Assembly: GCA_949361645.1 (NCBI GenBank)
Contig: OX442431.1
Span: forward strand, 7,126,653 to 7,190,652
Direction: 5' to 3'
Source: Spongilla lacustris
Taxonomy: Eukaryota > Porifera > Demospongiae > Spongillida > Spongillidae
DNA length: 64,000 nucleotides
Part shown: in pieces, positions 11,766 to 35,968 of the stretch
How positions within the stretch are numbered: the stretch's first letter is position 1
Layout: each line of letters starts with the position of its first letter
Notes under the pieces: model-generated
Told to the model about the DNA's origin: nothing
Database searches by the model: none
The model's input: only the letters and a program-made list of their open reading frames with translations
Translations under genes and position numbers: made by a program

Positions 11766-13775
11766 TTAAAAGCAAATGCAACTAGATCTATTTCTAGCAG
11801 ATATCAATGACTCATTTGGTAAAGGGATTGGATCAGGAACAAAGTCTTTTGGAAGGTGTTTCCATCCTCTAATACTTCCATCTACTTCCTGAATGAAGTA
11901 TGTACCCTTAGCTTTGTCATACTCCACATTCAACTGACGTGCCCAGTTCTGACCACGTGGCCAGTAGGTGTCATCCACATTCTGTTCTGCTACTCTTACC
12001 CATTCATCAGACACATCCACCACAATAGCAATGTGGCCTGTATGGCGAAATTTGCCACCTTTGTTCCAGATCAGAACAGCACCAGGTACAGGGCGCTCAG
12101 TAGATCCATTTGGAATGTTTGTCCAAGGAACCATTTCTTCGTCCTTCACCCTTATCGCATATGGCATGTCGAATACATCATAGGCCATACCAACATCACT
12201 GAATGTCACACCTGTAGCATGAATCAACCAGCGCCGGGCAAACTCCACACACTGATATCGCAATCCATAGTACAATTCACCATCCTGATGACGAAAGTGA
12301 AGGCCTACACGAGCAGTTCTATAGAGGGAGGAGTAGGCGGGGATTCCTCCAGGTGCATATCCCATAATGGCTCCAAAGGGCGCTCGCTGCCCAGCCAGGG
12401 TATCAGGTCCAATGCCATCCATCTCTTCAACAGTCTCCATGGGCATAACTTCATTCTCTGCAGTGGAATTCTTGTGATGGTGAGGATTGATAATTTCATC
12501 TGTGGGAAGGGCAGTGGCTGAACTATCATCAACAACACGCAGTGCTATGGAAAAAGAGTCAAAATTCAATATTGGACTCTTATCTACCCTCAACACAGTC
12601 CCTGCATAGTGTCCAGCCACACTGAATGTATTCACCTGAACATAATCCCCATCAATCATGGGCAATTTGCACAGTTCCTGGTACACAAATTGATTTTTTT
12701 TGAATCTTCCATCTGTAGATTCAACCACTTCAGGCTCAGCACTTGTAACAGGATTATGTAATACTATGTTTTCACCACCTCTTCCATTCACAGGTTTTGC
12801 TACATACCCTGTTTTCTTTAGCCTGTCGGTCACCTCCCAGGAGGAGTGCAAAAGGTTTGGGTGGTCAGGAAACATCTCCCACAGCACTGGAAGGATGGCC
12901 TTGTTTGCAGGGATGGCTGACCACCATGGTTCAAAAACAATCACATCCTCATGGAGGCAAACGTCTACAACACGAACTTTGCTGGAGCATCTAAGATGCT
13001 CTCCATTCCATTGTGAGAGCAGTGTGGTGTAGGACCATGTCTTCCAGACATATTTTACCAACTTCTTCTCATCATCCAAGATGTGCCCATTTTCATCAAA
13101 GGTGAAGTCATCCACATTTGAAACACATTTTCCAACAAAGCCTGCCTTCTGAGCGGCATGCATCATGTACATGGCATGGTACCTTTCCTCACCTACATTA
13201 TCATGTAGAAAGTGAACAAGAGTACCTTTGGGCAGATTGAGAAGGTGCCAAGCATTCACAAGCCTCTCCTCACAGCCAATACCTCCATCCACACCCACAC
13301 CTCCAATACCCACAGCCTTCGACCATGCATCCTGAACAAGCCCACACTCCATCAGGCAGGAAGCACTGTCAGCATTGTATTCTAAGCATTTAATGCCGTG
13401 CTCTGGTGTGATGGAAAGGTCAAAACGACCAGAGATAACTTTGTCACTAGTAAAGAAGGAAGCCAGAGCCCTGGGCCAGTACTGGGAGGGGAACCCAAAG
13501 GCAGGCCACAGTTCGGGGGTCTTACACACGTGCTCAGTTGCCTTGACAAACATTGAATGCAACTCTGTGGTAGCCTTGCACAGGGCTGCATGTGTAGATG
13601 ATGGAATCTGTACATAAGAGGCAGTTCTCCACTCAAGAGAGGAACCATTCAAATCAAAAAACACCTTCACATAAGGTACACTTGTGTCCATCCAGTCATG
13701 TTTCTTGCTGTGATCTGGTGGAAGTGTCACACTGGCCCGCACCAATGGAGCTATCTTGGTACTTTCTTTACTCAT
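11766..13775 (-). CDS. Glutathionylspermidine synthetase-amidase, domain-permuted, copy 1
   Basis: 669 residues in one uninterrupted ORF. Residues about 1-405 match the glutathionylspermidine synthetase (ATP-grasp-like) domain: GRFD at R117/D119, EYNADSASC with E132 and N134, the VWKTW and VFEPWW blocks, and R396 in the VLRVDKS block. These correspond to E. coli Gss R316, D318, E330, N332 and R598. After a linker, residues about 463-650 match the CHAP amidase: APFGAIMGYAPGG, then Cys509 (YQCVEFARRW), His581 (TGHIAIVV) and Glu597 (AEQN). The expected reactions are ATP-dependent joining of glutathione to spermidine and the reverse hydrolysis, in the cytosol. The domain order is reversed relative to E. 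coli. A splice-acceptor-like TTTCTGACAG lies 13 bp before the ATG, suggesting a 5'-UTR intron. The C-terminal tail differs from the other copies and ends in a Cys-rich stretch. Confidence 0.92.
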   Translation of the reverse strand: MSKESTKIAPLVRASVTLPPDHSKKHDWMDTSVPYVKVFFDLNGSSLEWRTASYVQIPSSTHAALCKATTELHSMFVKATEHVCKTPELWPAFGFPSQYWPRALASFFTSDKVISGRFDLSITPEHGIKCLEYNADSASCLMECGLVQDAWSKAVGIGGVGVDGGIGCEERLVNAWHLLNLPKGTLVHFLHDNVGEERYHAMYMMHAAQKAGFVGKCVSNVDDFTFDENGHILDDEKKLVKYVWKTWSYTTLLSQWNGEHLRCSSKVRVVDVCLHEDVIVFEPWWSAIPANKAILPVLWEMFPDHPNLLHSSWEVTDRLKKTGYVAKPVNGRGGENIVLHNPVTSAEPEVVESTDGRFKKNQFVYQELCKLPMIDGDYVQVNTFSVAGHYAGTVLRVDKSPILNFDSFSIALRVVDDSSATALPTDEIINPHHHKNSTAENEVMPMETVEEMDGIGPDTLAGQRAPFGAIMGYAPGGIPAYSSLYRTARVGLHFRHQDGELYYGLRYQCVEFARRWLIHATGVTFSDVGMAYDVFDMPYAIRVKDEEMVPWTNIPNGSTERPVPGAVLIWNKGGKFRHTGHIAIVVDVSDEWVRVAEQNVDDTYWPRGQNWARQLNVEYDKAKGTYFIQEVDGSIRGWKHLPKDFVPDPIPLPNESLISARNRSSCICF

Positions 13776-14083
13776 TACACTGATGTGCCTGTCAGAAATG
13801 AATGTTAAAAAAAAGAAAACTAATGAACAACCTTAATCCCCTGATGTCCTACACATACATGTAGGGCGCAACTTAAAATGCAAACCCGTATGAACAGAGA
13901 ATGAACTACATGTAAAAATTGGTTATACTGGAGAAATGGTCTTTTATTAAAAAAAATAAAAAAAAGAAAGAAAGAAAAAAAAAAACACTGTATAAAAAGA
14001 CAATAGGTAACTCAGCATGACCCCTGTGCTGGGAAGCACAGGGTATTTTTCTATGAAAAAAAAACCCAAACAAAAAACAGAAA

Positions 14084-14150
14084 AACTGGAGACATTGCAG
14101 TGCCTTGGTATTGTGGTAGAAGAACTGGAGACATTGCAGTGCCTTGGTGG
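14084..14150. repeat. 39-bp minisatellite, fewer than two copies (X1 allele)
   Basis: The unit begins GAACTGGAGACATTGCAGTG. The same locus in X2 (21845-22302) has nearly 12 copies. Confidence 0.85.
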
Positions 14151-14742
14151 ACTGCTCCGCCATCAAGTAGGGCGGCACCTTATTAGAGGAAACTGCCATT
14201 TCTTCATCAATGTACATGTGGATGAGCTGTTGCATCTTGCTGCTATGGTGACGTACATGTGGATGAGCTATTATTCAAAGTGTGATGTTAACAGTGGTTT
14301 TACAAAGAGTGCAAGCTGATGAATGAAACAGCATCAACTTTGGCGATGGGAATGAATGTCATAGTTTGTCTGGTGCTGCACTCACCAATGACCACACCAA
14401 CTGCCAACAGCACAAGACTACTCTCTATTGAGTCCACAATTGACAGCGAGCATCCACGCAGTTAATGCAGCAACGGGTTCTGGTTCTGCATGGGAGTGCC
14501 ACAGCCAGCAATGCACAGCTGCACTACTGTATGGAGATGCAGCATTCCTCACAAGGTATAATTTGGTTATCAGCAAGAACTTTGCCAATCATTGCAAGAG
14601 GGAGCACATAATATTCATGTTTTTCCATGAAGACAGAAAGCCACAGGGAACAAAACAGAAGTGGGGGCAGTAACTTTAGCACGGATCATCATGAACACTT
14701 TCAAGCTAGGTTCGGCTGAAAACTTCATCATAGCAGCACGAG

Positions 14743-14990
14743 GCAACAGCTCATCCACGTCAGTCACCATAGCAACAAGAAGCAACAGCTCATCCATGTC
14801 AGTCACCATAGCAACAAGAGGCAACAGGTCATCCACGTGTCTGTCACCATAGTAGCAAGAGGCAACAGTTCATCCGTGTGTCCGTCACCATAGCAGCAAG
14901 AGGCAACAGCTCATCCATGTGTCCGTCACCATAGCAGTAAGAGGCAACAGCTCATCCATGTGTCCATCACCATAGCATCAAGAGGTACAC
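14743..14990. repeat. 39-41 bp minisatellite (GCAACAGCTCATCC type)
   Basis: About six units built on GCAACAGCTCATCCATGT with a CACCATAGCA core. Units are 39 bp, or 41 bp where a GT dinucleotide is inserted. The homologous array is at about 22895-23063. Confidence 0.8.
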
Positions 14991-15631
14991 CATTTTTCCT
15001 TAATAGGGTGACACTCGTACCATTTCCTGACAGGATGCATTGATCCATGTGGGATGTAGACACATGATGTTTCAGTGGATCACAGCTCTCGGTAACAAAA
15101 TAACAATTCTTGATCTTGCATGTTAGTGACATGTACTGATCCAAAATTTGAATCTTAATGCACCAATACTCTAGTGTAAGGAGTTTAATTATTCTTAATA
15201 GCTATTCTCCATCACATTTAGCATGAAAAAACCTTACAAAATTGAAGCTATGCATGGTATTGCTTCAAGTACCAACAAAAGATTAGAACAACGTGCAAGA
15301 AGAAGGGAGTAGTAAGGCAGGCAGGTCTTTGGCGCTTTGCAAAGACAAATGTATATAATGTTTATTGTAGAGTTGGAAGGTGCTGGCTCGACAAGTGCAA
15401 TAGATTTGTCAGTCGCCTGTTTTGGATAGATGGAATGAATAGACCCATGTAGATCTAGATGACCTGGCGCCTTGGAGGCCCAGGCAAGGCTAGACATGTG
15501 CAAGGGGGCAGGAGCACCTTACCAATATATTAAATTACATGCATGTAGGTGCAACCTAGCTGGATCTATGTATGCTAGTATATACCGGTACACATGTAGC
15601 GTCTAATAATGTAGCACAGCCTCAAAGTTCA

Positions 15632-15876
15632 CAGTGGCGGATCCCTCAGGTGTGCGCAGTCCTCTCGGGCCCGATTAACTAAGTAAAGTCACCGAATTAT
15701 ATCATCATACGTGAGCTACACAGGCCGTAGCTATAGGGGAGATTGCCCAGGCCCGTAGGCAGGGGAGATATCAATCATTTATCGTATCATGCCTGAAACG
15801 GACAGCACCCCCCCCCCCCCCCGTATCAGTCCCGCTGCGCGCCACCCCCTTGTTGAAATCCTGGATCCGTCACTGG
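15632..15876. mobile_element. MITE with CAGTGGCGGATCC ends and GTTCA target duplication
   Basis: The left end CAGTGGCGGATCC and right end GGATCCGTCACTG are inverted repeats. A 5-bp direct repeat, GTTCA, flanks the element. It is absent from the homologous position in X2. A poly-C tract lies near its right end. Confidence 0.75.
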
Positions 15877-16542
15877 TTCAGGCTATTGTGCTTGTGGGTG
15901 TTTAAAATCCATTGGGCTATTCGTACACCCCTATGGATGACAGTGTCAAAGGGGGGAATAAAATTATGAAGCTTGACCTGCGGTTAAGAATAACGGTGGA
16001 TGGTATAAGCGATGTCAATGTAGGTGTGACCGCCACAACATCCGCCCTGCTGGTTAGAGAGTACATGTAGGGACTATCGTTACTTTATGTATTTACCTTC
16101 TCTACCAATTGGGTTCACAGTGCCATCTTTTATTTTTAATTCCTGGTCCTAAGTACGTGCTCGTATGGATCGATATCCACAACAGCATGCGACATATGAT
16201 TGTACTGAAGTGATCGCTAACCTGTGAACGTTTCGGGGTTCTTTGTGTACATCACAGTCCCCAGGCCAAAAAAATAACCACACCCTCTATTTTATCACAC
16301 CTTTTGTAGGGCGTCATCAGTGCGCAGATTAGGGGGGGGGGGGGAGAAATCGTACTTCCAGCCCTGGGTTTACCCTGGGTTTGTTCGATGAATCGTCGAT
16401 CCCGACCAGGTTGATAGGTTTTTAACAAAATTCACACTTGCCTTTCTCACCCTCAATGCCTGGGATCGTCGAACAAAACCCACGCTGGGAATACGATTTT
16501 TTTCCCTGTGCGCGCGAAGTTGAAGCTCAACAGACAACAGTC

Positions 16543-17232: not shown

Positions 17233-19536
17233 CAGTACTGCTGCTACTCAGCTCAGAGCCACACTGCCTTCCAATCTTCTACTAGCGATGGACCTACATG
17301 TAAAGGAGCATACAGCTGGCTTACCGTGCTCCCTATAGAAGAGTATGGGTTTACCGGTTTACCCTTCACAAGACTGCCTTCCGAGATGCATTAGCTCTTA
17401 GGTATGGCTGGTTACCTGCCAACACGCCCACCATCTGAGTGTGGTGCTGCCTTCTCTGTTGAGCATGCACTGTCATGTCCAAAAGGTGGTTTCCCTTCCA
17501 TCAGGCACAATGAGATCAGCACCTGTACAGCTTATCATTTGTCAAATTTGCCACAATGTTTCAGTTGAGTCTCTTCTACAACCCATCACAGGTGAGGTTT
17601 CACGTCTGCCTCAGCCACTTCCAGGATGGTGCTAGACTTGATGTAGCTGATGGATTCTGGGGGAGTCGTTTTGAGAGGGAATTCTTTGACGTAAAGGTTT
17701 TCATGCCCCCTCAAATAGACGACCTCAACTATCTGCCTGTTACCATTCTCATGCAAAAAAGCGCGCCTATGAGCAAAGGATCCTAGAAGTTGAGCATGCA
17801 TCCTTCACCCCACTCATCTTCTCTGCCACTGGAGGCTTAGGAAGTGAGACCACAGTGGTTTACAAACGTATCACTGCCCAGCCGGCTATCAGCAAAGTGG
17901 GACCACACATATAGTTCAACCATGGCTTGGACTTTCCTTCTCCCTCCTATGCTCCTCCATCATGTGCATCAGAGGGGCCCGATCATCTATGGGCCATGCC
18001 TTCAACCACTCTCCTGCTGACCTGCATTATTGCAAAGGTTGCACAGGTCTCATTCCTTCCTTAGCTTACATGTATTGCCTACCAGTGCACATATATTTCA
18101 ATGTTTAACCCACTGATTCCATATATACATCATGTGTATTGGTACTTAAGATCCAATTGGATAAAAGGTTTATATCTTTGACACTTGTCACCACTGAAGG
18201 CTACTGTTAGCGGCTATGCGTAAGTACTAGAGCACAATGCAGGAACTTTAACTTTACTAATATGCTTGATACAAATTCTCATTACACACCCAATGGATAC
18301 CATTGAGATTTGATCAGAAATACTATTTATATATTTTTAAATGTATCAAATATAGGCACATATATGAATATGGATAATGCATATTTGGAACTGTGGCCGT
18401 CATTGATACATTAATAAGGTATACAGTGATAGTCATCCAATCAGAGATTCTATCCCTTGCTTGAATTGTTTCACAGATGCTGTGACCAGATACTATGAAA
18501 ATGCGTAAATATAATAGGCAGCAACATTATGGTGGTCATGGGGTGGTGTTGGTGATTATATGACAACGAGTTCCCTGTGTGGTAGCCGCCATTACTGCCA
18601 TTGCAGCTTCCAGCTGTGGCTGTTTGTTTGCTTGTGATTGCACGATAGTAGGTGCTTTCTGTTTGCAGGTCTAATGAGTCCACAACTCCGGGGGAGGTAC
18701 TGTAGCAGCATATAGCACAAATGAACTGGTGATAAATTGTTCATGTTCGTAAGCAGAAGTATTGGGATAATACATCCCTTCATCCCAAATGTACACATTC
18801 TGCACACCATGGACTTGTTTACTTGCTGCCTTCTTTAACGAGTCAGTGTCTGCTCACCTTGGCAATCCCATTTGTAAACCACACATATATGTGGCACCGG
18901 GACAGCTACCCATGGGCATTGCAGACCTGGTACGCATTATCACCATGCAGCTATTAATAACATTCATCCACAGAGCTTTCAATGCAGCACATGTTGAACC
19001 CCTCAGGTTTAGACTGGTCAGATGGGATGCACCCTGATGGTGTTAAAATCAAGTTAATTATGTGAGGCCACCTGTACCAATACTTTTAATTAGCACATTC
19101 TTACTATTGCTAAATCCACCCTTATTGCTGCTATAGCTGATGACAAAAGATCCAAAAATGACCATTAAAAAAACCACAGCCATATTTCTCAATTGCAATT
19201 GAGATATATATGGTGTTTGTGGCCCCAAAAAACACACACTTCATTAGTGCATGAGATTGCCTCCCAATAGATCTAGTCTACCTTTGGTACCAGTTTCATT
19301 TGCCATTCAGACAACCTCAATTTTGGGGAGCGCACCACATATGAATTAGTAACACTGATCGTTTCAACTACTTGTAATTTTGTCTTGTACAAAACATTAC
19401 AAAAAATAATAAATTATGGTAGTAATATGTGTACAACTTGGATGATCCTAAATAAACAACACAAATGCATGTATGCAATAAAAGTGGATGTGAAAAACTG
19501 TATTTATAATGACATGAAATACATGTCCCAAGCCTA

Positions 19537-21543
19537 TCACAGTGGTTTCGATGAATCTTTTGGCAAAGACACTGGATCATGGACAAAATCTTTTGGAAGG
19601 TGTTTCCATCCTCTCACACTTCCATCTACTTCCTGAATGAAGTATGTACCCTTAGCTTTGTCATACTCCACAGCCAACTGACGTGCCCAGTTCTGACCAC
19701 GTGGCCAGTAGGTGTCATCCACATTCTGTTCTGCTACTCTTACCCATTCATCAGACACATCCACCACAATAGCAACGTGACCTGTCCAGTGAAATTCACC
19801 TCCTTCATTCCAGATCAGAACAGCACCAGGCACAGGGCGCTCAGTAGATCCATTTGGAATGTTTGTCCAAGGAACCTTTTCATCATCCTTCACTTTTATT
19901 GCATATGGCATGTCAAATATGTTATATGCCATATCAACTTCACCAAATGTCACACCTGTAGCATGGATCAGCCAGCGTCGAGCAAACTCCACACACTGAT
20001 ATCGGAATCCATAAAAAATTTTGCCCACCTGATGACGAAACTGTACACGCGATGTATACACAGTTCTATCTGCAGTGTCATAGTCACAAGAGTAGGCGAG
20101 GATTCCACCAGGTGCATATCCCATAATGGCACCAAAGGGTGCTGGCTGTCCAGCCAGGGTATCAGGTCCAGTGCCATCCGTCTCTTCAACAGTCTCCATG
20201 GGCACAACCTTTTCAGGCTCTTTCTCGGGAATGTACCTCCTGTGATGGTAAGGATTGACTATTTCATCTGTGGGAAGGGGAGTGCCTGAACCATCATCAA
20301 CAACACGCAGTGCTATGGAAAAAGAGTCAAAATTCAAGATTGGACTCTTATCTACCCTCAACACAGTCCCTGCATAGTGTCCAGCCACACTGAATGTATT
20401 CACCTGAACATACTCCCCATCAATCATGGGCAATTTGCATAGTTCCTGGTACACAAATTGATTATTTTTGAATCTTCCATCTGTAGATTCAACCACTTCA
20501 GGCTCAGCACTTGTAACAGGATTATGTAATACTATGTTTTCACCACCTCTTCCATTCACAGGTTTTGCTACATACCCTGTTTTCTTTAGCCTGTCGGTCA
20601 CCTCCCAGGAGGAGTGCAAAAGGTTTGGGTGGTCAGGAAACATCTCACTCAGCACTGGAAGGATGGCCTTGTTTGCAGGGATGGCTGACCACCATGGTTC
20701 AAAAACAATCACATCCTCATGGAGGCAAACGTCTACAACACGAACTTTGCCGGAGCGTCTAAGATGCTCTCCATTCCATTGTGAGAGCAGTGTGGTGTAG
20801 GACCATGTCTTCCAGACATATTTTACCAACTTCTTCTCATCATCCAAGATGTGCCCATTTTCATCAAAGGTGAAGTCATCCACATTTGAAACACATTTTC
20901 CAACAAAGCCTGCCTTCTGAGCGGCATGCATCATGTACATGGCATGGTACCTTTCCTCACCTACATTATCATGTAGAAAGTGAACAAGAGTACCTTTGGG
21001 CAGATTGAGAAGGTGCCAAGCATTCACAAGCCTCTCCTCACAGCCAATACCTCCATCCACACCCACACCTCCAATACCCACAGCCTTCGACCATGCATCC
21101 TGAACAAGCCCACACTCCATCAGGCAGGAAGCACTGTCAGCATTGTATTCTAAGCATTTAATGCCGTGCTCTGGTGTGATGGAAAGGTCAAAACGACCAG
21201 AGATAACTTTGTCACTAGTAAAGAAGGAAGCCAGAGCCCTGGGCCAGTACTGGGAGGGGAACCCAAAGGCAGGCCACAGTTCGGGGGTCTTACACACGTG
21301 CTCAGTTGCCTTGACAAACATTGAATGCAACTCTGTGGTAGCCTTGCACAGGGCTGCATGTGTAGATGATGGAATCTGTACATAAGAGGCAGTTCTCCAC
21401 TCAAGAGAGGAACCATTCAAATCAAAAAACACCTTCACATAAGGTACACTTGTGTCCATCCAGTCATGTTTCTTGCTGTGATCTGGTGGAAGTGTCACAC
21501 TGGCCCGCACCAATGGAGCTATCTTGGTACTTTCTTTACTCAT
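19537..21543 (-). CDS. Glutathionylspermidine synthetase-amidase, domain-permuted, copy 2 (chimeric)
   Basis: 668 residues, single ORF. The synthetase domain is almost identical to copy 1, including the GRFD and EYNADSASC blocks. The linker and CHAP domain match copy 3 instead, for example the SCDYDTADRTVYTSRVQF segment and the YHHRRYIPEKEPEK linker. The switch lies just after the SFSIALRVVDD block, near 20295-20310. The amidase triad is C517, H589 and E605. Its 5' flank matches copy 1's 5' flank and its 3' flank matches copy 3's 3' flank, so gene and flanks show the same mosaic. The same acceptor-like TTTCTGACAG precedes the ATG. The expected activity is as for copy 1; nothing in the sequence suggests it is inactive. 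Confidence 0.92.
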   Translation of the reverse strand: MSKESTKIAPLVRASVTLPPDHSKKHDWMDTSVPYVKVFFDLNGSSLEWRTASYVQIPSSTHAALCKATTELHSMFVKATEHVCKTPELWPAFGFPSQYWPRALASFFTSDKVISGRFDLSITPEHGIKCLEYNADSASCLMECGLVQDAWSKAVGIGGVGVDGGIGCEERLVNAWHLLNLPKGTLVHFLHDNVGEERYHAMYMMHAAQKAGFVGKCVSNVDDFTFDENGHILDDEKKLVKYVWKTWSYTTLLSQWNGEHLRRSGKVRVVDVCLHEDVIVFEPWWSAIPANKAILPVLSEMFPDHPNLLHSSWEVTDRLKKTGYVAKPVNGRGGENIVLHNPVTSAEPEVVESTDGRFKNNQFVYQELCKLPMIDGEYVQVNTFSVAGHYAGTVLRVDKSPILNFDSFSIALRVVDDGSGTPLPTDEIVNPYHHRRYIPEKEPEKVVPMETVEETDGTGPDTLAGQPAPFGAIMGYAPGGILAYSCDYDTADRTVYTSRVQFRHQVGKIFYGFRYQCVEFARRWLIHATGVTFGEVDMAYNIFDMPYAIKVKDDEKVPWTNIPNGSTERPVPGAVLIWNEGGEFHWTGHVAIVVDVSDEWVRVAEQNVDDTYWPRGQNWARQLAVEYDKAKGTYFIQEVDGSVRGWKHLPKDFVHDPVSLPKDSSKPL

Positions 21544-21844
21544 TACACTGATGTGCCTGTCAGAAATGAATGTTAAAAAAAAGAAAACTAATGAACAACC
21601 TTAATCCCCTGATGTCCTACACATACATGTAGGGCGCAATATAAAATGCAAACCCATATGAACAGAGAATGAACTACATGTAAAAATTGGTTATACTGGA
21701 GAAATGGTCTTTTATTCAAAAAAAAAAAAAAGAAAGAATGAAAAAAAAACACTATAAAAAGACAATAGGTAACTCAGCATGACCCTAGTGCTGGGAAGCA
21801 CAGGGTATTTTTCTATGAAAAAAAAACCCCAAACAAAAAACAGA

Positions 21845-22302
21845 AAAACTGGAGACATTGCAGTGCCTTGGTATTGTGGTAGAAGAACTGGAGACATTGC
21901 AGTGCATTGGTATTGTGGTAGAAGAACTGGAGACATTGCAGTGCCTTGGTATTGTGGTAGAAGAACTGGAGACATTGCAGTGCCTTGGTATTGTGGTAGA
22001 AGAACTGGAGACATTGCAGTGCCTTGGTATTGTGGTAGAAGAACTGGAGACATTGCAGTGCCTTGGTATTGTGGTAGAAGAACTGGAGACATTGCAGTGC
22101 CTTGGTATTGTGGTAGAAGAACTGGAGACATTGCAGTGTCTTGGTATTGTGGTAGAAGAACTGGAGACATTGCAGTGCCTTGGTATTGTGATAGAAGAAC
22201 TGGAGACATTGCAGTGCCTTGGTATTGTGGTAGAAGAATTGGAGACATTGCAGTGCCTTGGTATTGTGGTAGAAGAACTGGAGACATTGCAGTGCCTTGG
22301 TG
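21845..22302. repeat. 39-bp minisatellite, about 12 copies (X2 allele)
   Basis: Tandem 39-bp units with few substitutions. Because 39 is 13 codons, several frames on both strands stay open across it. These ORFs are repeat artefacts (repeated GDIAVPWYCGRRT and similar), not genes. Confidence 0.93.
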
Positions 22303-22894
22303 GACTGCTCCGCCATCAAGTAGGGCGGCACCTTATTAGAGGAAACTGCCATTTCTTCATCGATGTACATGTGGATGAGCTGTTGCATCTTGCTGCTATG
22401 GTGACGTACATGTGGATGAGCTATTATTCAAGTGTGATGTTAACAGTGGTTTTACAAAGAGTGCAAGCTGATGAATGAAACAGCATCAACTTTGGCGATG
22501 GGAATGAATGTCATAGTTTGTCTGGTGCTGCACTCACCAATGACCACACCAACTGCCAACAGCACAAGACTACTCTCTATTGAGTCCACAATTGACAGCG
22601 AGCATCCACGCAGTTAATGCAGCAACGGGTTCTGGTTCTGCATGGGAGTGCCACAGCCAGCAATGCACAGCTGCACTACTGTATGGAGATGCAGCATTCC
22701 TCACAAGGTATAATTTGGTTATCAGCAAGAACTTTGCCAATCATTGCAAGAGGGAGCACATAATATTCATGTTTTTCCATGAAGACAGAAAGCCACAGGG
22801 AACAAAACAGAAGTGGGGGCATAACTTCAGCACGGATGAGTCATCATGAACACTTCCAAGCTAGGTTTGGCTGAAAATGTCATCATAGCAGCAA

Positions 22895-24042: not shown

Positions 24043-27000
24043 CAATATAAGCAAGCGATGTCAATGTAGGTGTGACCGCCACAACATCCGCCCTGCTGGT
24101 TAGAGAACTTACACGTACATGTAGGGACTACCGTTACTTTATGTATTTTGTGACAGTAATTCCTGGTCCTAAGCACGTGCTCGTATGGATATCCACAACA
24201 GCATGCGACATACTCAACTGTACGGAAGTGGTCGCTAACCTGTAAACGTTTCGGGGTTCTTTGTGTTCACCTGAAGGTTCCCAGGCCAAAAAATAACCAC
24301 ACCCTCTATTTTATCACAGCGTCATCAGTGCGTAAATTAGCTTTATTTGGATAGCAGGGGAAAAAATATCGTATTTCCAGCCCTGGGTTTACCCTGGGTT
24401 TTGTTCGACGAATCGTCGTCAATCCCAGGTTGATAGGTTTTTAACAAAAATAATATTAATTCACAGTCGGTTGATTTAGTCATTATCAACCTGGGTCAGG
24501 GATCGTCGAACAAACCCATGCTGGGAATACGACCATTTTCTCCTGTGCGCGCGCGAAGTTGAAGCTCAACAAACACAGTACTGCTGCCACTCAGCTCAGA
24601 GCCACACTGCCGTCCAATCTCCTGCTAGTGATGGACCTACATGTACCGTGCTCCCTATAGAAGAGTATGGGTTTACCCTTCACAAGACCGCCTTCCGAGA
24701 TGTACTAGGTTTTAGGTATGGCTGGTTACCTGCCAACACGCCCACCATCTGAGTGTGGTGCTGCCTTCTCTGTTGAGCATGTACTGTCTTCTCTGTTGAG
24801 CATGTACTGTCATGTCCAAAACGTGGCTTCCCTTCCATCAGGCACAATGAGATTAGCGCAAATTTGCCACAATGTTTCTTCTACATCCCATCACAGGTGA
24901 GGTTTTGACCTCTGCCTCAGCCAACTTCCAGGATGGTGCTCGACTTGATGTAGCTGATGGATTCTGGGGGGAGTCGTTTTGAGAGGGCATTCTTTGACGT
25001 AAAGGTTTTCAACCCGTATGCTCCCTTAAATAGATGACCCTATCTGCATGTTACCGTACCCACGAGGCCTCAAAGAAACGAGCCTATGAGCGAAGGATCC
25101 TCGAAGTTGAGCATGCCTCCTTCACCCCACTCATCTTCTCTGCCGCTGGAGGCTTAGGAAGTGAGGCCACAGTGGTTTACAAACGTATTGCTGCCCAACT
25201 ATCAGCAAAGTGGGACCACACATGTAGTTCAACCATGGATTGGATTCGTTGTAATCTTTCCTTCTCCCTCCTACGCTCCTCCATCATGTGCATCAGAGGG
25301 GCCCGATCATTTATGGGCCGCCTTCAACCACTCTCCTGCTGACCTGCATGATTGCAAAGGCTGCACAGGTCTCATTCCTTCCTTAGCTTACCTGTATTGC
25401 CTGCCAGTGCACATATATTTCAATGTTTTTAACCCAATACATCTGATCATGTGTATTGGTACTTTAAAGGAATTTGGATAGAGCCAGTGAATACCTACAA
25501 TGTAGTACTGAGCCTCAGAAAGCTCAGACAACAGAATAATGCACACTCCACCCTTAAAAAAACGTTTATCCTACTTCTTTATCCAATACATTAAAAGATC
25601 CAATTCGATAAGAGTTTAATTATAGCTTTGACACTTGTCACCACTGAAGGCTACTGTTAGCGGCTATGCGAAAGTAGGAACTTTAACTTTACTAATATGC
25701 TTGATACAAATTCACATTACACACCGAATAAATTTGATCAGGAATACTATTTATATATTTTTTTAATGTATCAAATATAGGCACATAATCCCTATATAGG
25801 ACCGACTACATCGGTCCCATTCCCAACCCAGGTAGCTGTAGGTGCAGGACTGGGGACCCACACATGAGGATGTCATTAAGGGATAATATATGAACATGCA
25901 TATTTGGAGCTGTGCCTATCATTGATACATTAATATGGTATATCTATAGTGATGGTCATCCAATCAGAGATTCTATCCCTTGCTTGAAATGTTTCACAGA
26001 TCCTATAGCCAGATACTATAAATATAATAGGCAGCAAATATGGAATTGACATTATGGTGGTCATGGGGTGGTGTTGGTGATTATATGATGATGAGTTCCC
26101 TGTGTGGTAGCCGCCATTACTGCCATTGCAGCTTCCAGCTGTGGCTGTTTGTTTGCTTGTGGTTGCACAATAGTAGGTGCTTTCTGTTTGCAGGTCTAAT
26201 GAGTCCACAACTCCGGGGGAGGTACTGTAGCAGCATATAGCACAAATGAACTGGTGATAAATTGTTCATGTTCGTAAGCAGAAGTATTGGGATAATACAT
26301 CCCTTCTTCACAACTGTACACATTCTGCTCACCTTGGACTTGTTTACTTGCTGCCTCCTTTAATGAGTCAGTAGCTTGGCTCAGGTCTTCTCACCTTGGC
26401 AATCTCATTTGTAAACCCCACATTTAAGTGAAGTATATGTGGCACCAGGACAGCTACCCATGGGCAATGCAGACCTGGTACATCACCATGCTGCCATTAA
26501 TAACATTCATCCACAGAGCTTTCAATGCAGCACATGTTGAACCCCTCAGGTTTAGACTGGTCAGATGGGATGCACCCTGATGGTGTTAAAATCAAGTTAA
26601 TCATGTGAGGCCAACTGTACCAATATTACTATTGCTAAATCCACCCTTATTGCTGCTAGACGTCTATAGCTGATGACAAAAGATCCAAAAATGACCATTA
26701 AAAAAACCACAGCCATATTTCTCAATTGCAATTGAGATATATATGGTGTTTGTGGCCCCAAAAAACACACACTTCTTTAGTGCATGAGATTGACTCCCAA
26801 TAGATCTAGTCTACCTTTGGTACCAGTTTCATTTGCAATTAAGGCAACTTCAATTTTGGGGAGCGCACCACATATGGATTAGTAACGCTGATCTTTTCAA
26901 CTACTTGTAATTTTGTCTTGTACAAAAAATAAATTATGGTAGTAATATGTGTACAACTTGGATGATCCTAAATAAACAACACAAATGCATGTATACAATA

Positions 27001-27056
27001 AAAGTGGATGTGAAAAACTGTATTTATAATGACATGAAATACATGTCCCAAGCCTA

Positions 27057-29078
27057 TCACAGTGGTTTCGTTGAATCTTTTGGCAAGGGCACTGGATCAC
27101 GGACAAAATCTTTTGGAAGGTGTTTCCATCCTCTCACACTTCCATCTACTTCCTGAATGAAGTATGTGCCCTTAGCTTTGTCATACTCCACAGCCAACTG
27201 ACGTGCCCAGTTCTGACAACGTGGCCAGTAGGCGTCATCCACATTCTGTTCTGCTACTCTTACCCATTCATCAGACACATCCACCACAATAGCAACGTGA
27301 CCTGTCCGGCGAAATTCACCTCCTTCATTCCAGATCAGAACAGCACCAGGCACGGGGCGCTCAGTAGATCCATTTGGAATGTTTGTCCAAGGAACCTTTT
27401 CATCATCCTTCACTTTTATTGCATATGGCATGTCAAATATGTTATATGCCATATCAACTTCACCAAATGTCACACCTGTAGCATGGATCAGCCAGCGTCG
27501 AGCAAACTCCACACACTGATATCGGAATCCATAAAAAATTTTGCCCACCTGATGACGAAACTGTACACGCGATGTATACACAGTTCTATCTGCAGTGTCA
27601 TAGTCGCAAGAGTAGGCGGGGATTCCTCCAGGTGCATATCCCATAATGGCACCAAAGGGTGCTGGATGTCCAGCCAAGGTATCAGGTCCAGTGCCATCCA
27701 TCTCTTCAACAGTCTCCATGGGCACAACCTTTTCAGGCTCTTTCTCGGGAATGTACCTCCTGTGATGGTAAGGATTGACTATTTCATCTGTGGGAAGGGG
27801 AGTGCCTGAACCATCATCAACAACACGTAGTGCTATGACAAAAGATTCCAGATTCATGATTAGACTTTTGTCTGCCCTCAGCACAGTCCCTGCATAGTGT
27901 CCAGCCACACTGAATGTATTCACTTGAACATAATCCCCATCAATCATGGGCAATTTGCACAGTTCCTGGTACACATATTGATTATTTTTGAATCTTCCAT
28001 CTGTAGATTCAACCACTTCAGGCTCAGCACTTGTAACAGGATTATGCAATACTATGTTTTCACCACATCTTCCATTCACAGGTTTTGCCACATACCCTGT
28101 TTTTTTTAGCCTGTCGGTCACCTCCCAGGAGGAGTGCAAAAGGTTTGGGTGGTCAGGAAACATCTCACTCAGCACTGGAAGGATGGCCTTGTTTGCAGGG
28201 ATGGCTGACCACCATGGTTCAAAAACAATCACATCCTCATGGAGGCAAACGTCTACAACACGAACTTTGCCAGAGCGTCTAAGATGCTCTCCATTCCATT
28301 GTGAGAGCAGTGTGGTGTAGGACCATGTCTTCCAGATATATTTTACCAACTTCTTCTCATCATCCAAGATGTGCCCATTTTCATCAAAGGTGAAGTCATC
28401 CACATTTGAAACACATTTTCCAACAAAGCCTGCCTTCTGAGCGGCATGCATCATGTACAAGGTGTGGTACCTTTCCTCACCTACATTATCATGTAGAAAG
28501 TGAACAAGAGTACCTTTGGGAAGGTTGAGAAGGTGCCAAGCATTCACAAGCCTCTCCTCACAGCCAATACCTCCATCCACACCCACACCTCCAATACCCA
28601 CAGCCTTCGACCATGCATCCTGGACAAGCCCACACTCCATCAGGCAGGAAGCACTGTCAGCATTGTATTCTAAGCATTTAATGCCGTGCTCTGGTGTGAT
28701 GGAAAAGTCAAAACGACCAGAGATAACTTTGTCACCACTAAAAAAGGAAGTCAGAGCCTTGCGCCAGTACTGGGAGGGGAACCCAAAGGCAGGCCACAGT
28801 TCGGGGGTCTTACACACGTGCTCAGTTGCCTTGACAAACATTGAATGCAACTCTGTGGTAGCTTTGCACAGGGCTGCATGTGTAGATGATGGAATCTGTA
28901 GGTAGGTGGTAGTTTTCTGGTCGGGAGAGTTGACCAGATTGGAGCCATATTGATCAAAAAACACCTTCACATAAGGCAGACTGTGGTTCATCCAGTCATG
29001 TTTGTTGCTGTGCTCTGGTGGAAGTGTCACACTGGCCTGCACCAATGGAGCTATCTTGGAACTTTCTCTACTCATCAT
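27057..29078 (-). CDS. Glutathionylspermidine synthetase-amidase, domain-permuted, copy 3
   Basis: The ORF is open to 29141, but I place the start at the MM pair (29078 or 29075), which aligns with the ATG of copies 1 and 2. An acceptor-like TTTATTAG lies about 20 bp upstream, so the more distal frame is probably 5'-UTR intron. The synthetase block is complete (GRFD, EYNADSASC, VLRADKS). The glycine loop reads GRCGEN here, as in E. coli GRCG, while the other copies read GRGG. The amidase Cys is at about 521 counted from 29075, with the His and Glu at the usual 72 and 16 residue spacing. The N-terminal segment has an extra stretch (NLVNSPDQK) shared in pattern with copy 4 and the pseudogene. 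The PRCQNWAR segment reads PRGQNWAR in the other copies. Confidence 0.92.
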   Translation of the reverse strand: MMSRESSKIAPLVQASVTLPPEHSNKHDWMNHSLPYVKVFFDQYGSNLVNSPDQKTTTYLQIPSSTHAALCKATTELHSMFVKATEHVCKTPELWPAFGFPSQYWRKALTSFFSGDKVISGRFDFSITPEHGIKCLEYNADSASCLMECGLVQDAWSKAVGIGGVGVDGGIGCEERLVNAWHLLNLPKGTLVHFLHDNVGEERYHTLYMMHAAQKAGFVGKCVSNVDDFTFDENGHILDDEKKLVKYIWKTWSYTTLLSQWNGEHLRRSGKVRVVDVCLHEDVIVFEPWWSAIPANKAILPVLSEMFPDHPNLLHSSWEVTDRLKKTGYVAKPVNGRCGENIVLHNPVTSAEPEVVESTDGRFKNNQYVYQELCKLPMIDGDYVQVNTFSVAGHYAGTVLRADKSLIMNLESFVIALRVVDDGSGTPLPTDEIVNPYHHRRYIPEKEPEKVVPMETVEEMDGTGPDTLAGHPAPFGAIMGYAPGGIPAYSCDYDTADRTVYTSRVQFRHQVGKIFYGFRYQCVEFARRWLIHATGVTFGEVDMAYNIFDMPYAIKVKDDEKVPWTNIPNGSTERPVPGAVLIWNEGGEFRRTGHVAIVVDVSDEWVRVAEQNVDDAYWPRCQNWARQLAVEYDKAKGTYFIQEVDGSVRGWKHLPKDFVRDPVPLPKDSTKPL

Positions 29079-29165
29079 ACTGAAGGAACGAAGTATCCCT
29101 AATAAATATTGAAAGTCAATTGTTAAAAAGAAATGATACAAAGATTATTTTAGTAGGTGTGCGTG

Positions 29166-29196
<31 letters not shown>
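29166..29196. repeat. (TG)n microsatellite
   Basis: Uninterrupted TG dinucleotides about 60 bp beyond the upstream ORF limit of copy 3. Confidence 0.95.
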
Positions 29197-29198
<2 letters not shown>

Positions 29199-29585
29199 GG
29201 AGTGCGCATAACTATAGGTTTGTACAAATTTATGGACACTTTACTGCATAACTTCCTCATTGTGTTATACACCACTAAGGAAGATCAGATCAGATCATCA
29301 GGTTTATATATCCAAAGTCAGTTTTGATATATGGCTTTAACATTATTTGAAATTATTAAGTCCTTATGATGATTTGAGGGCTTAATGTAAGAGTTGTTTG
29401 TGAAGAATTTCAACAAGGAAACCAGACCTAACTCTCCTTATATGTAATTACCAGATGGAATGTGATTTTCAAAGTTCAAGTTAACATTTGCATTACACTA
29501 TCTTGGCACTTTAAATTGAATTTTGCATCAGGGGAACATGATCTAAAATAGTAAATCACAATGATGATAGAGGGCATTAAGGCCT

Positions 29586-31514: not shown

Positions 31515-31545
<31 letters not shown>

Positions 31546-31739
31546 TGAAAATAATAATAGCATATTCGTGATGCTCTCAATGAGCTCTTCAAAGTTGGGG
31601 GATGGTGTCTTTCACTTTGTTTTTTGCACCCCCCTCCCCCCATCCCTCGATTAAATTTTCTTCAAAATTTAAACATTGCATACACTTACATATAAAAGTA
31701 ACAATTGATGACTGCCTTGCAATCATTGCTTTGACATTG
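30731..31739. other. Intergenic region with dispersed repeat and poly-C tracts
   Basis: No gene is recognised. 31095-31140 resembles the sequence just right of the assembly gap at 47337-47385 (TCCAACARGATTTT, then CGTTCATGA). A C-run lies at about 31517-31545. Confidence 0.4.
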
Positions 31740-31749
31740 TGCCTCTGGA

Positions 31750-32064
31750 GAGCAAAGGCATAGTCTGGTGTGTTGGAAAAGTCAAAACGACCAGTACGAA
31801 CCCAAAGGCAGGCCACAGTTCGGGGGTCCTACACACATGCTCAGTAGCCTTGACTACTCTGTCGTAGCCTTGCACAGGGCTGCATGTGTAGATGGTAGGT
31901 AGGTGGTCGTTTTCTGGTCAGGAGAATTGACCAGATATCAAAAAACATCTTTACATAAGGCAGATTTCTGTCCATCCAGTTGTGTATGCAATGTCACTGT
32001 GATCTAGTGAAAGTGTCCCACTGCCATGCACCAATGGAGCTATCTTGGCACTTTCTCTACTCAT
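31750..32064 (-). pseudogene. Broken fifth copy of the Gss-like gene (N-terminal fragment)
   Basis: The reverse strand starts ATGAGTAGAGAAAGTGCCAA and reads MSRESAKIAPLVH, then matches the copies' N-terminus through the KTTTYL, CKAT and TPELWPAFGF segments. It contains frameshifts and an internal deletion from the GFPSQYW region to the GRFDF block, then ends. It covers only the first roughly 130 residues of the intact genes. It lies between copies 3 and 4 in the same orientation. Confidence 0.85.
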
Positions 32065-32627
32065 TGTACTGTAACAGCGAATAATCAGTTGCTAAGAGAA
32101 TTTGAAAGCTCCCTTTGTCCTACTCATCCTTCCAATCACAAATATGTATACTGAAGAAGGGGAAAAGAAATAACTTGTAGCTGAATGCATACTCTGAGCC
32201 TAGCAGCCATTGGCATACAAGCACCATACCTTCAGCTCACAATGTCTGCCAATAATGTTGTACTGTTAGCTGCAATACAACACAACACTATATAAACTAT
32301 TTTTTGCAGGCCACACTACAGTTCTAACTGAGGTGAATTCTTGGCACTTATGCAGTTTCCCCCCCCCCCCCCCCCCCCCCACTTTAATTATTGCGTTTAC
32401 GTAATTATTTTTAAAATGTATGCGTGTGGTACTCTTTATGTAAGAGGGAGGGGTACCCCCTTCCTCACCCTCCCCACTAAATAACGGACGTAACCAACAC
32501 TCCATGAAATGCATACAATACATAGTCGGATTGCTACGACCCTCCCCAATTAAAAAAGGTGAAGGGGGGGGGGGGGGTTCAATAGACATGCGCCTTCCTT
32601 GGAAAGGTTGTATTTCACTCGGTGGAA

Positions 32628-32657
32628 CCATAGATTAATAACGCTATTAATCTATGG
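32628..32657. repeat. Perfect short palindrome (13-bp stem, 4-bp loop)
   Basis: CCATAGATTAATA, loop ACGC, TATTAATCTATGG. The palindrome is itself bordered by a direct repeat GGTGGAAC. It could be the footprint of a small element or a hairpin-mediated rearrangement. Confidence 0.8.
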
Positions 32658-33979
32658 TGGAACATGTACAAGCTGTGTAAACAGATCCGGTTTAGTCCCA
32701 GCACGCACGTGTGAAACGCCCCTTTCTTTTCTTTCATTTTTTTTCTTTTCTTTTTTTAAATACGGAGCAAAAGTAGGCCAAAAGTTTGTACTTAATGGGG
32801 CCTTTTACTAGCTATGTTAAAGTATATGAGAAAACCACGTACATACGATCAACGTTTGGCCATCAACCAGTTAGTTACTCAACAGGATTAAGTAAAAACA
32901 AAAACTCACTGCGAAGCGCGAACATTGATCGTTTTCAGGCTCTTCTAAATTTCTCTTCTCCCAGAAGGATAAGTACCAGTTTGGGCACAAACACTGAAAC
33001 AGCTGCTATTCAAAAGCAAGACCGACGCCCAAAAGCAGCCCTTTAGGTAAAATAAACCGTGCGGTGACGTACTTCACATGACGTAATTTAATAACGCTTG
33101 AAGTAACGTACGTAGTTATTAATTCGAAAAGCAGAAAGTTTCATACGGGTATACGGCTCCCATGCTCCTTGCATGCTGGCGGACAAACTTGCTGATAAAT
33201 GGAAAAGAATATATTATGAAGTTGCAGGATAGATACGAGCTAGGCTGTCCTTTAGAGCCACCAATGTATGTCTTCGAGGATCCCGAACCAAGTGGAGAAG
33301 CGGGACAGGATTTGATGATGGAGCTGGACTACCAGAACTTACATGTACATATTGAGACGTGTGTGTGTGGGGGGGGGGGGGGTGGGTGTGTGCCTGCAAA
33401 CGGTGTGTCAGTGTGTGCACTTAATAATAGTTAGTCCTTCTTTTGTTCACATTTCATATGTATTATGTACCTTCTGGGTAGGGCTGGAAGAGGCCAGAGC
33501 AGAATTAACTGAGATGGCATTGGGAAGTGAGACCCGGGAGTTAAATGCCACTACTGCCGGCTGAAGATGGATACTGTCAGCACTGCCAAAGCCGGAGGAT
33601 GGTAGGGATGCAATGAAAGCAGCAGCAGCGTGAAGTGAGACAGAGCAAAGGCCTAGACCACCAAATTTCAGTCCGAGCTATGCCTGGTACCATGCTCCGG
33701 TGGGAACTTAAATTCAATTACACAGGGTAGAGCTATGTAATGTATAGCAGCTATATCTATTAGCTGCAGCAGTGCAGCTACAAACAAATAGACACTGACG
33801 ACACATGTGCACACATACGTCATAACAGGATAGCTGCTGCTAGCCTGCTACATGCCATGTAACTGATAGATGACCAGAAAACTTTGTTATGAGGGGATCA
33901 TGCATAGCAATAGTGATGTATGAGTATACAATATATTGACAGCAAGTCATATCAACTATCAGCATAGCTAAGGCATTGA
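32658..33979. other. Intergenic region upstream of copy 4's 3' end
   Basis: No gene is recognised with confidence. A short plus-strand frame around 33180-33345 (PMYVFEDPEPSGEAG and neighbours) looks somewhat protein-like, but it has no clear partner exons. A G-run sits at 33369-33381. Confidence 0.3.
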
Positions 33980-35968
33980 TCATTCTCTTGGCAGAGGCAC
34001 TGGATCAGAAGCAAAGTCTTTTGGAAGGTGTTTCCATCCTTTGATACTTCCATCTACTTCCTGAATGAAGTATGTGCCCTTAGCTTTGTCATACTCCACA
34101 GCCAACTGACGTGCCCAGTTCTGACCACGTGGCCAGTAGGCGTCATCCACATTCTGTTCTGCTACTCTTACCCATTCATCAGACGCATCCACCACAATAG
34201 CAACGTGACCTGTCCAGTGAAATTCACCTCCTTCATTCCAGATCAGAACAGCACCAGGCACAGGGCGCTCAGTAGATCCATTTGGAATGTTTGTCCAAGG
34301 AACCTTTTCTTTGTCCTTCACCCTTATCGCATACAGCATGTCAAATATCTCGTAGGCCATACCAACTTCATCAAATGTCACACCTGTAGTATGAATCAAC
34401 CAGCGTCGGGCAAACTCCACACACTGATATCGGTACCCATAGTAAAGCTGGCCCACCTGATGATTAAAGTGTACATCAGATGTGTACATGGTTTTATCTG
34501 CAGTGTCATAATCTGAAGAGTAGGCGGGGATTCCTCCAGGTGCATATCCCATAATGGCACCAAAGGGTGCTGGCCGTCCAGCCAGGGTATCAGGTCCAGT
34601 GCCATCCATCTCTTCAACAGTCTCCATGGGCACAACCTTTTCAGGCTCTTTCTCAGAAATGTACCTCCTGTGATGGTAAGGATTGACTATTTCATCTGTG
34701 GGAAGGGGAGTGCCTGAACCATCATCAACAACACGCACTGGTATGACAGAAGACTTCAGATTCATGATTGGACTTTTGTCTACCCTCAGCACAGTCCCTG
34801 CATAGTGTCCAGCCACACTGAATGCATTCACCTGAACATACTCCCCATCAATCATGGGCAATTTGCACAGTTCCTGGTACATATAGTGATTCTTTTTGAA
34901 TCTTTCATCTGTAGATTCAACCACTTCAGGCTCAGTAGTTGTAACAGGATTATGCAATACTATGTTTCTCCCACCTCTTCCATTCACAGGTTTTGCCACA
35001 TAACCTGTTTTCTTTAGCCTGTCAGTCACCTCCCAGGAGGAGTGCAAAAGGTTTGGGTGGTCAGGAAACATCTCGCACAGCACTGGAAGGATGGCCTTGT
35101 TTGCAGGGATGGCTGACCACCATGGTTCAAAAACAATCACATCCTCACTGAGGCAAACATCTACCACACGAACTTTACCAGAGCGTCTAAGATGCTCTCC
35201 ATTCCATTGTGAGAGCAGTGTGGTGAAGGACCACGTCTTCCAGACATATTTTACCAATTTCTTCTCATCATCCAAGATGTGCCCATTTTCATCAAAGGTG
35301 AAGTTGTCCACATTTGAAACACATTTTCCAACAAAGCCTGCCTTCTGAGCGGCATGCATCATGTACATGGCATGGTACATTTCCTCACCTACATTATCAT
35401 GTAGAAAGTGAACAAGAGTACCTTTGGGCAGATTGAGAAGGTGCCAAGCATTCACAAGCCTCTCCTCACAGCCAATACCTCCATCCACACCCACATCTCC
35501 AATACCCACAGCCTTCGACCATGCATCCTGGACAAGCCCACACTCCATCAGGCAGGAAGCACTGTCAGCATTGTATTCTAAGCATTTAATGCCGTGCTCT
35601 GGTGTGATAGAAAAGTCGAAACAACCAGAGATAACTTTGTCACCAGTAAAAAATGAAGCCAGAGCCCTGGGCCAGTACTGGGAGGGGAACCCAAAGGCAG
35701 GCCACAGTTCGGGGGTCTTACACACGTGCTCAGTTGCCTTGACAAACATTGAATGCAACTCTGTAGTAGCCTTGCACAGGGCTGCATGTGTAGACGATGG
35801 AATCTGTACATAGGAGGTAGTTTTCTGGTAAGAAGAGTTGGACAAATTGGAGCCATACAGGTCAGAAAACATCTTTACATAAGGCAGACTTCTGTCCATT
35901 GAGTTGGTATGATGTGGTATCAAATAGGCCTGCATCAATGGAGCTATCTTGTTACTTTCTTCACTCAT
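33980..35968 (-). CDS. Glutathionylspermidine synthetase-amidase, domain-permuted, copy 4 (synthetase Arg lost)
   Basis: 662 residues, single ORF. The catalytic arginine of the synthetase GRFD motif is Cys116 here (ISGCFDF); the other three copies keep Arg at this site, equivalent to E. coli R316. EYNADSASC and the later Arg (VLRVDKS) remain. The amidase triad is intact: Cys516, then His and Glu at spacing 72 and 16. The N-terminus is shorter and divergent. Upstream, an acceptor-like TTTTTTTCCAG is followed by an in-frame hydrophobic stretch (TGLLVVLTTLFFFAA) that reaches the ATG without a stop. If an upstream exon supplies a start, copy 4 would carry a signal peptide or anchor. It may therefore act mainly as an amidase, possibly in another compartment (inference). 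Confidence 0.9.
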   Translation of the reverse strand: MSEESNKIAPLMQAYLIPHHTNSMDRSLPYVKMFSDLYGSNLSNSSYQKTTSYVQIPSSTHAALCKATTELHSMFVKATEHVCKTPELWPAFGFPSQYWPRALASFFTGDKVISGCFDFSITPEHGIKCLEYNADSASCLMECGLVQDAWSKAVGIGDVGVDGGIGCEERLVNAWHLLNLPKGTLVHFLHDNVGEEMYHAMYMMHAAQKAGFVGKCVSNVDNFTFDENGHILDDEKKLVKYVWKTWSFTTLLSQWNGEHLRRSGKVRVVDVCLSEDVIVFEPWWSAIPANKAILPVLCEMFPDHPNLLHSSWEVTDRLKKTGYVAKPVNGRGGRNIVLHNPVTTTEPEVVESTDERFKKNHYMYQELCKLPMIDGEYVQVNAFSVAGHYAGTVLRVDKSPIMNLKSSVIPVRVVDDGSGTPLPTDEIVNPYHHRRYISEKEPEKVVPMETVEEMDGTGPDTLAGRPAPFGAIMGYAPGGIPAYSSDYDTADKTMYTSDVHFNHQVGQLYYGYRYQCVEFARRWLIHTTGVTFDEVGMAYEIFDMLYAIRVKDKEKVPWTNIPNGSTERPVPGAVLIWNEGGEFHWTGHVAIVVDASDEWVRVAEQNVDDAYWPRGQNWARQLAVEYDKAKGTYFIQEVDGSIKGWKHLPKDFASDPVPLPRE

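What the first reader, a model, noticed from the sequence alone, without database searches (positions are those of the whole stretch)
11766..35968. Glutathionylspermidine synthetase-amidase with reversed domain order in an animal genome
All four intact copies read synthetase first (about 1-405), then CHAP amidase (about 463-650). In E. coli Gss and in trypanosomatid TryS the amidase comes first. The CHAP part begins APFGAIMGYAPGG, like the very N-terminus of E. coli Gss, so the swap is at clean domain borders. Glutathionylspermidine metabolism is known mainly from bacteria and kinetoplastids; a permuted bifunctional enzyme in a metazoan points to an undescribed thiol-polyamine pathway.
Basis: partly seen in the sequence, partly recalled or inferred. 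Interest (0 to 1): 0.88.

Follow-up and report, generated by a model that had tools for sequence, protein, structure and literature searches.

The report
Domain-swapped glutathionylspermidine enzyme gene array
Four neighbouring genes in this apparently eukaryotic genome encode a fused protein, predicted to join glutathione to spermidine and split them again, whose two halves sit in the opposite order from the known E. coli and Leishmania enzymes; thirteen unnamed database proteins carry the same swap, which likely arose once.

Summary

Among 222 proteins classified, 17 have the swap: these four, five close and eight distant relatives. Trees of each half group them together; the same lineage holds synthetase-only proteins and P0151, which keeps the usual order. 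This fits one permutation within a distinct, probably eukaryotic, Gss lineage, though clade support is moderate. Glutathionylspermidine/trypanothione synthetase transcripts in an animal were already reported (bdelloid rotifer, PMC3499245), so "undescribed pathway" is too strong. I found no report of the swapped order in eight open-access text searches, three of them poorly aimed. No activity has been measured, and my calls do not show that the genome is an animal's.

The parts
11766..13775 (-). copy 1 (P0001, 669 aa): synthetase then amidase, amidase triad Cys509/His581/Glu597
19537..21543 (-). copy 2 (P0002, 668 aa): synthetase then amidase; mosaic, its synthetase nearest copy 1 and its amidase nearest copy 3
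27057..29075 (-). copy 3 (P0007, 672 aa from the Met at 29075; P0003 is the same ORF from an upstream TTG)
33980..35968 (-). copy 4 (P0004, 662 aa): open frame, but Cys116 in place of the Arg aligned with Gss Arg316
20269..21468 (-). synthetase (ATP-grasp) domain of copy 2, residues 26-425
   Evidence: nucleotide borders computed from residue numbers
20164..20268 (-). linker of copy 2, residues 426-460; pLDDT under 50 from 429 to 461
19594..20163 (-). CHAP amidase domain of copy 2, residues 461-650; Cys517, His589, Glu605
31727..32064 (-). truncated, eroded fifth copy (5' end of the synthetase part only)
   Evidence: tblastn, 38% over 97 residues and a second overlapping piece in another frame

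Best explanation
The four genes encode the two halves of a glutathionylspermidine synthetase/amidase fused in swapped order: an N-terminal ATP-grasp synthetase predicted to make glutathionylspermidine from glutathione, spermidine and ATP, and a C-terminal CHAP amidase that would likely hydrolyse it back. Shown by sequence: order, domain borders, the amidase Cys-His-Glu in all four copies, most synthetase residues compared, and the same fused frame in 13 other proteins. Inferred: the swap likely arose once, inside a probably eukaryotic Gss lineage whose ancestor had the usual amidase-synthetase order, by tandem duplication of the gene and loss of the outer domains, so that the synthetase's own C-terminal tail became the linker to the amidase. 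Inferred: because the Leishmania TryS tail (residues 634-652) plugs its amidase channel, turning that tail into a tether probably changes how synthesis and hydrolysis are balanced. Inferred: in this genome tandem copies are reassorted by unequal crossing over or gene conversion, and copy 4 (Cys for Arg316) has probably lost synthetase activity while keeping the amidase.
Against: No activity, transcript or metabolite was measured. One of four acidic residues of the Gss polyamine pocket named in PMC6272389 (Asp389) is Val in all four copies, so another polyamine is possible; one of the 22 amidase-first outgroup rows (P0022) also has Val there. Gss Ser337, given a catalytic role in that review, is Ala in P0009 and P0151, Thr in P0010 and Asn in P0150, so not every member need be an active synthetase. 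Support for a single permuted clade is moderate in the synthetase tree (94/84, not starred), and in the amidase tree P0151 falls among the permuted rows (87/83 for its join with P0016/P0018/P0020); one clade is not rejected (p-AU 0.365). The synthetase of P0151 is only 37% identical to copy 2, no more than E. coli's 39% (289 against 263 bits). Only the best 120 of 1949, 1873 and 256 hits were listed in the three searches. The other permuted proteins carry no organism names; that they are eukaryotic is inference. In the model part of the amidase (490-513) is also under pLDDT 50. dN/dS of the copy 1 / copy 2 synthetase pair is 1.28, on very few changes.
Confidence: 0.72

Rival explanations
1. 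The swapped order arose by fusion of a free-standing synthetase gene with a newly acquired amidase gene from elsewhere, not by permutation of one bifunctional gene.
For: Free-standing synthetases exist in the same lineage (P0029, P0033, P0061, P0065, P0067, P0072), and five of these six end in a tail like the start of the linker.
Confidence: 0.2
2. The protein is a permuted Gss relative that has changed substrate: another polyamine, or another acid-amine ligation, with the amidase cleaving that product.
Against: Glu391, Glu392, Ser337 and the other ATP-grasp residues compared, apart from positions 539 and 610, are kept in copies 1-3; Z to Gss is clearly higher than to YgiC/YjfC (51 against 38-43); an amidase of the Gsp type is retained.
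Confidence: 0.2
3. It makes trypanothione (two glutathiones per spermidine), like TryS.
Against: Both halves of copy 1 score better against E. coli Gss than against TryS, the amidase clearly so (145.0 against 84.5 bits; synthetase 270.5 against 265.5). No tool here tests the second ligation.
Confidence: 0.12
4. Contamination or assembly artefact: bacterial or symbiont genes.
For: The genes have no intron inside the coding frame, and my calls name no host organism.
Against: The four bifunctional prokaryotic loci fetched were all amidase-first; the window has long spacers, microsatellite-like arrays and large inverted repeats, a tandem array of diverged copies with a decayed fifth one, and pyrimidine tracts with AG before the start codons (read by eye).
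Confidence: 0.03

Closest known systems
E. coli bifunctional glutathionylspermidine synthetase/amidase (Gss/GspSA, b2988; PDB 2io7)
   Different: Domain order reversed; about 35-residue linker between synthetase C-terminus and amidase N-terminus; Val in place of Asp389
Trypanothione synthetase-amidase of trypanosomatids (L. major, PDB 2vob/2vps)
   Different: Amidase first; its free C-terminal tail plugs the amidase channel (PMC6272389, passages), whereas here that end continues into the amidase; amidase match weaker (84.5 bits)
P0151, unnamed 748-aa protein of the same lineage
   Same: Amidase 54% and synthetase 37% identical to copy 2; groups with the permuted proteins in both trees
   Different: Ordinary amidase-first order; an insert in the ATP-grasp part
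Glutathionylspermidine/trypanothione synthetase transcripts of the bdelloid rotifer A. ricciae (PMC3499245, passages)
   Same: Thiol-polyamine synthesis genes in an animal
   Different: Reported there as derived from a trypanosome relative; domain order not stated in the passages seen

Membership tests
Bifunctional glutathionylspermidine synthetase/amidase (Gss) | GSP_synth ATP-grasp domain with its catalytic residues | tested here: met
   PF03738 at E 1.8e-64 to 3.1e-61 in 4 of 4; 17, 17, 18 and 16 of 19 compared positions kept in copies 1-4, copy 4 lacking Arg316
Bifunctional glutathionylspermidine synthetase/amidase (Gss) | CHAP amidase with Cys59/His131/Glu147 | tested here: met
   4 of 4 copies. 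Cys59 named in PMC6272389; His131 and Glu147 recalled
Bifunctional glutathionylspermidine synthetase/amidase (Gss) | Amidase N-terminal to synthetase | tested here: not met
   Order reversed; NCBIfam NF007801 matched at 562.6 and 561.5 bits, below its cut-off of 882, in the 2 of 4 copies tested
Bifunctional glutathionylspermidine synthetase/amidase (Gss) | Forms and hydrolyses glutathionylspermidine | not testable with these tools
   needs an enzyme assay
Trypanothione synthetase (TryS) | Adds a second glutathione to glutathionylspermidine | not testable with these tools
   needs an enzyme assay
Trypanothione synthetase (TryS) | Amidase first, free C-terminal tail over the amidase channel | tested here: not met
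   synthetase C-terminus continues into the amidase

The most novel reading that the evidence does not exclude
A single ancient domain permutation founded a third branch of glutathionylspermidine enzymes, spread over diverse eukaryotes including an animal lineage with an expanding gene array, in which the amidase hangs on the synthetase's former autoinhibitory tail; branch members have then split the two jobs, some keeping only the amidase chemistry (copy 4 and P0150, both with Cys for Arg316) and others only the synthetase (P0018, P0020 with Gly for the catalytic Cys).
Probability: 0.45. Interest if true: 0.68.

Novelty: new variant of a known kind. Interest (0 to 1): 0.52.

Why it matters
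Gss and TryS are standard examples of opposing activities on one chain, and the synthetase tail is held to block the amidase channel in TryS. A natural permutation gives a direct test of how far that control depends on chain order. It also points to glutathionylspermidine chemistry in eukaryotes outside the kinetoplastids, in proteins that NCBI's Gss model does not name at its cut-off.

Tried and rejected
Prokaryotic origin of the swap: one scan of the prokaryote genome collection with the permuted alignment gave five loci; four are bifunctional and amidase-first, one matched only the amidase. The scan used two peptide patterns, so distant cases could be missed. A scan of viral contigs gave no relative among 21 pattern matches.

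Naming the genome: eight identical requests to search the window's own genome did not complete (not completed).

RanBP2-like zinc finger at the N-terminus of P0150: read by eye; Pfam did not list it at E 0.01, so I do not use it as evidence.

A codon-score scan for other exons gave one long low-complexity ORF at 60854-62941, repeat-derived frames and short stretches.

Papers: eight searches of open-access full text. Searches (10 of 10 listed; 18 of 18; 4 of 4; none found) were listed in full; one search listed 30 of 61. Searches were poorly aimed: they asked for any two terms, and their listings (25, 3 and 5 papers) hold no paper with 'glutathionylspermidine'. Nothing listed reported a synthetase-first enzyme or glutathionylspermidine in sponges by its title, abstract start or counts; I opened passages of seven papers only. 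Supplements were not read, and most subscription papers are not held. The E. coli Gss and Leishmania TryS structure papers were not held.
Full report
OBSERVATION. Four minus-strand ORFs (11766-13775, 19537-21543, 27057-29141, 33980-35968) each run without interruption from a glutathionylspermidine synthetase domain into a CHAP amidase. The third starts from the Met at 29075 as a 672-aa protein (P0007). NCBIfam's Gss model, tried on copies 1 and 4, matches at 562.6 and 561.5 bits in two stretches, under its cut-off of 882, as expected for a protein with its halves exchanged. Against the PDB, copy 1 residues 27-407 align with E. coli Gss 225-609 and 462-644 with 7-194; the Leishmania TryS matches come in the same swapped order. 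The start-to-start spacing of one repeat family within the genes is 7744, 7520 and 6908 bases (D6).

BORDERS. E. coli Gss ends in ...EPLIVVKK. In copies 2-4 the chain continues from the matching place (...RVVDDGSGTPLPTDEIVNP...) through a linker to PAPFGAI; E. coli Gss has APFGTLL at residue 10. Five of six free-standing synthetases of the same lineage end with a similar tail (DDGTGTPLPNEEIEF in P0033; similar in P0061, P0065, P0067, P0072; P0029 differs), so the start of the linker looks like the natural end of such a synthetase.

ACTIVE SITES. All four copies keep the equivalents of amidase Cys59, His131 and Glu147. Of 19 synthetase positions compared with E. coli Gss, copies 1 and 2 keep 17 (not 539 and 610), copy 3 keeps 18 (not 610) and copy 4 keeps 16 (not 316, 539 and 610; it has Cys for Arg316). 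Cys59, Ser337, Asp387, Asp389, Glu391 and Glu392 are named in PMC6272389 (section 4); the other sites and their roles are recalled. Asp389, one of four acidic residues of the polyamine pocket, is Val in all four copies, Ile or Glu in the five close relatives P0008-P0012, and Asp, Asn or Glu in the eight distant permuted proteins; Val also occurs in one of the 22 amidase-first outgroup rows (P0022). This leaves room for a different polyamine. Not all relatives keep Ser337: Ala in P0009 and P0151, Thr in P0010, Asn in P0150; P0008 has Lys for Arg538.

HOW WIDE IS THE SWAP. Three protein searches were run, with P0002, with the permuted alignment A1, and with the seven distant permuted proteins A2; they reported 1949, 1873 and 256 hits, of which only the best 120 each are listed. 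I classified domain order in 222 proteins: all retrieved ones and the window copies plus E. coli Gss, after dropping P0003 (same ORF as P0007) and the two unrelated window ORFs P0005 and P0006. Result: 197 amidase-first, 17 synthetase-first, 8 synthetase only. The 17 are the four window copies, five close relatives (79-83% identical to copy 2 over 97-100% of it; P0008-P0012, source tag 'ena') and eight distant ones (source tags 'jgi' or 'lgn'): P0014-P0020, 48-54% identical to copy 2, and P0150, 45% identical to P0015. P0013 is a synthetase-only relative on a contig of the same length as P0011's (117,996 bases). An earlier count on 125 proteins gave 98 amidase-first, 17 synthetase-first (counting P0003 as well as P0007), 8 synthetase only and 2 neither. 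Several distant contigs are not much longer than the gene (2042-2453 bases for P0016-P0020), which would fit transcripts; this, and that they are eukaryotic, is inference. A scan of prokaryotic genomes gave four bifunctional relatives, all amidase-first.

TREES. Synthetase tree, 48 rows, careful method: the 17 permuted, 7 synthetase-only and P0151 are one side of a 100/100 branch; inside it the permuted rows plus P0013 form a clade at 94/84 (bootstrap/SH-aLRT, not starred), beside a group of six synthetase-only rows plus P0151 at 96/84. Amidase tree, 40 rows: the 17 permuted plus P0151 are one side at 100/100; P0151 falls among them, joined with P0016, P0018 and P0020 at 87/83, and holding the 17 together without it is not rejected (lnL 2.60 lower, p-AU 0.365). 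Earlier trees without P0150 and P0151 gave the 16 permuted amidases as one side at 100/100 (59 rows) and the 16 permuted plus 7 synthetase-only rows as one side at 99 (67 rows, quick method). Long end branches (P0042, P0150, P0151, P0016) were flagged by the tool. P0151 is amidase-first, with an amidase 54% and a synthetase 37% identical to copy 2, against 43% and 39% for E. coli Gss: the amidase is clearly nearer, the synthetase nearer by score (289 against 263 bits) but not by identity. As the 22 bifunctional outgroup rows and P0151 are amidase-first, the simplest reading is that amidase-first is ancestral and the swap happened once within this lineage. Tandem duplication followed by loss of the first amidase and the last synthetase is a usual route to such a change; it is inferred, not shown.

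DECAY OF ONE HALF. P0018 and P0020 have Gly for the catalytic Cys of the amidase, with the compared synthetase residues kept apart from Ser for Thr441 and Ile for Cys539. P0150 has lost several synthetase residues (Cys for Arg316, Lys for Glu330, Gly for Ser335, Asn for Ser337, Val for Lys533, among others) with the amidase triad kept. Copy 4 of the window also has Cys for Arg316. The halves seem able to lose function separately; this is inference from residues.

THE ARRAY. Between copies, dN/dS over the whole frame is 0.44-0.50 (Nei-Gojobori), so the proteins are under constraint. Copies 1 and 2 are 99.1% identical in the synthetase but 87.4% in the amidase, while copies 2 and 3 are 95.1% and 98.1%: copy 2 is a mosaic with a change near the linker, as unequal crossing over or gene conversion would give. 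The copy 1 / copy 2 synthetase pair alone has dN/dS 1.28, on very few changes. A fifth, truncated and eroded copy lies at about 31727-32064. Upstream of the start codons lie pyrimidine tracts followed by AG, which could be 5' UTR intron ends; read by eye, not tested.

KNOWN OR NEW. E. coli Gss is described as N-terminal amidase and C-terminal synthetase (PMC6272389, section 4); the TryS chain in the PDB has the same order. Eukaryotic homologues are known in kinetoplastids, Euglena, Stentor, Plasmodiophora and oomycetes (PMC7052976, passages; PMC2248709, passages; PMC8234872, passages), and foreign synthetase transcripts in a bdelloid rotifer (PMC3499245, passages). Viral glutathionylspermidine synthetase homologues are mentioned in PMC9992855 (passages), and PMC10318531 places the Gss and TryS amidases among CHAP proteins, with no swapped order in the passages seen. 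Eight searches of the open library (three of them poorly aimed, see Tried and rejected) listed no report of the reversed order. I therefore rate it a new variant of a known kind: it works like Gss by most residues and both folds compared, but fails the defining order.

LIMITS. No activity, expression or metabolite data; no organism names; own-genome search unanswered.

Noticed in passing
31727-32064 (-): Truncated and eroded fifth copy of the 5' part of the gene between copies 3 and 4.
   Followed up: partly
21764-22379: 39-base tandem repeat in the duplicated block upstream of copy 2; the matching block upstream of copy 1 (14079-14905) has little of it.
   Followed up: no
1-6806: Large, 98-100% complementary inverted repeats (up to 1245 bases per arm) nested with direct repeats, around a 7TM-like ORF at 2917-3894 (-); possible recent duplication-inversion or assembly fold-back.
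   Followed up: no
44934-47120, 48185-49500, 54357-56300: Long microsatellite-like arrays with spacings of 8/12, 21, 19 and 23 bases that make spurious long ORFs in several frames.
   Followed up: no
57931-64000 (-): Possible multi-exon gene with weak FYVE_2 (E 0.016) and rabphilin-3A (E 0.66) matches and a long low-complexity ORF at 60791-62833.
   Followed up: partly
17622-17699 and 24890-24979 (+): Two stretches reading QDGARLDVADGFWG, which I recall from retroelement proteins of marine invertebrates; no Pfam match at E 0.01 for the ORF that holds the first.
   Followed up: no
11766-11810 (-), C-terminus of copy 1: Copy 1 ends in a different tail (SSCICF) from copies 2 and 3 (KPL) and copy 4 (LPRE); by eye like a CaaX box.
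   Followed up: no
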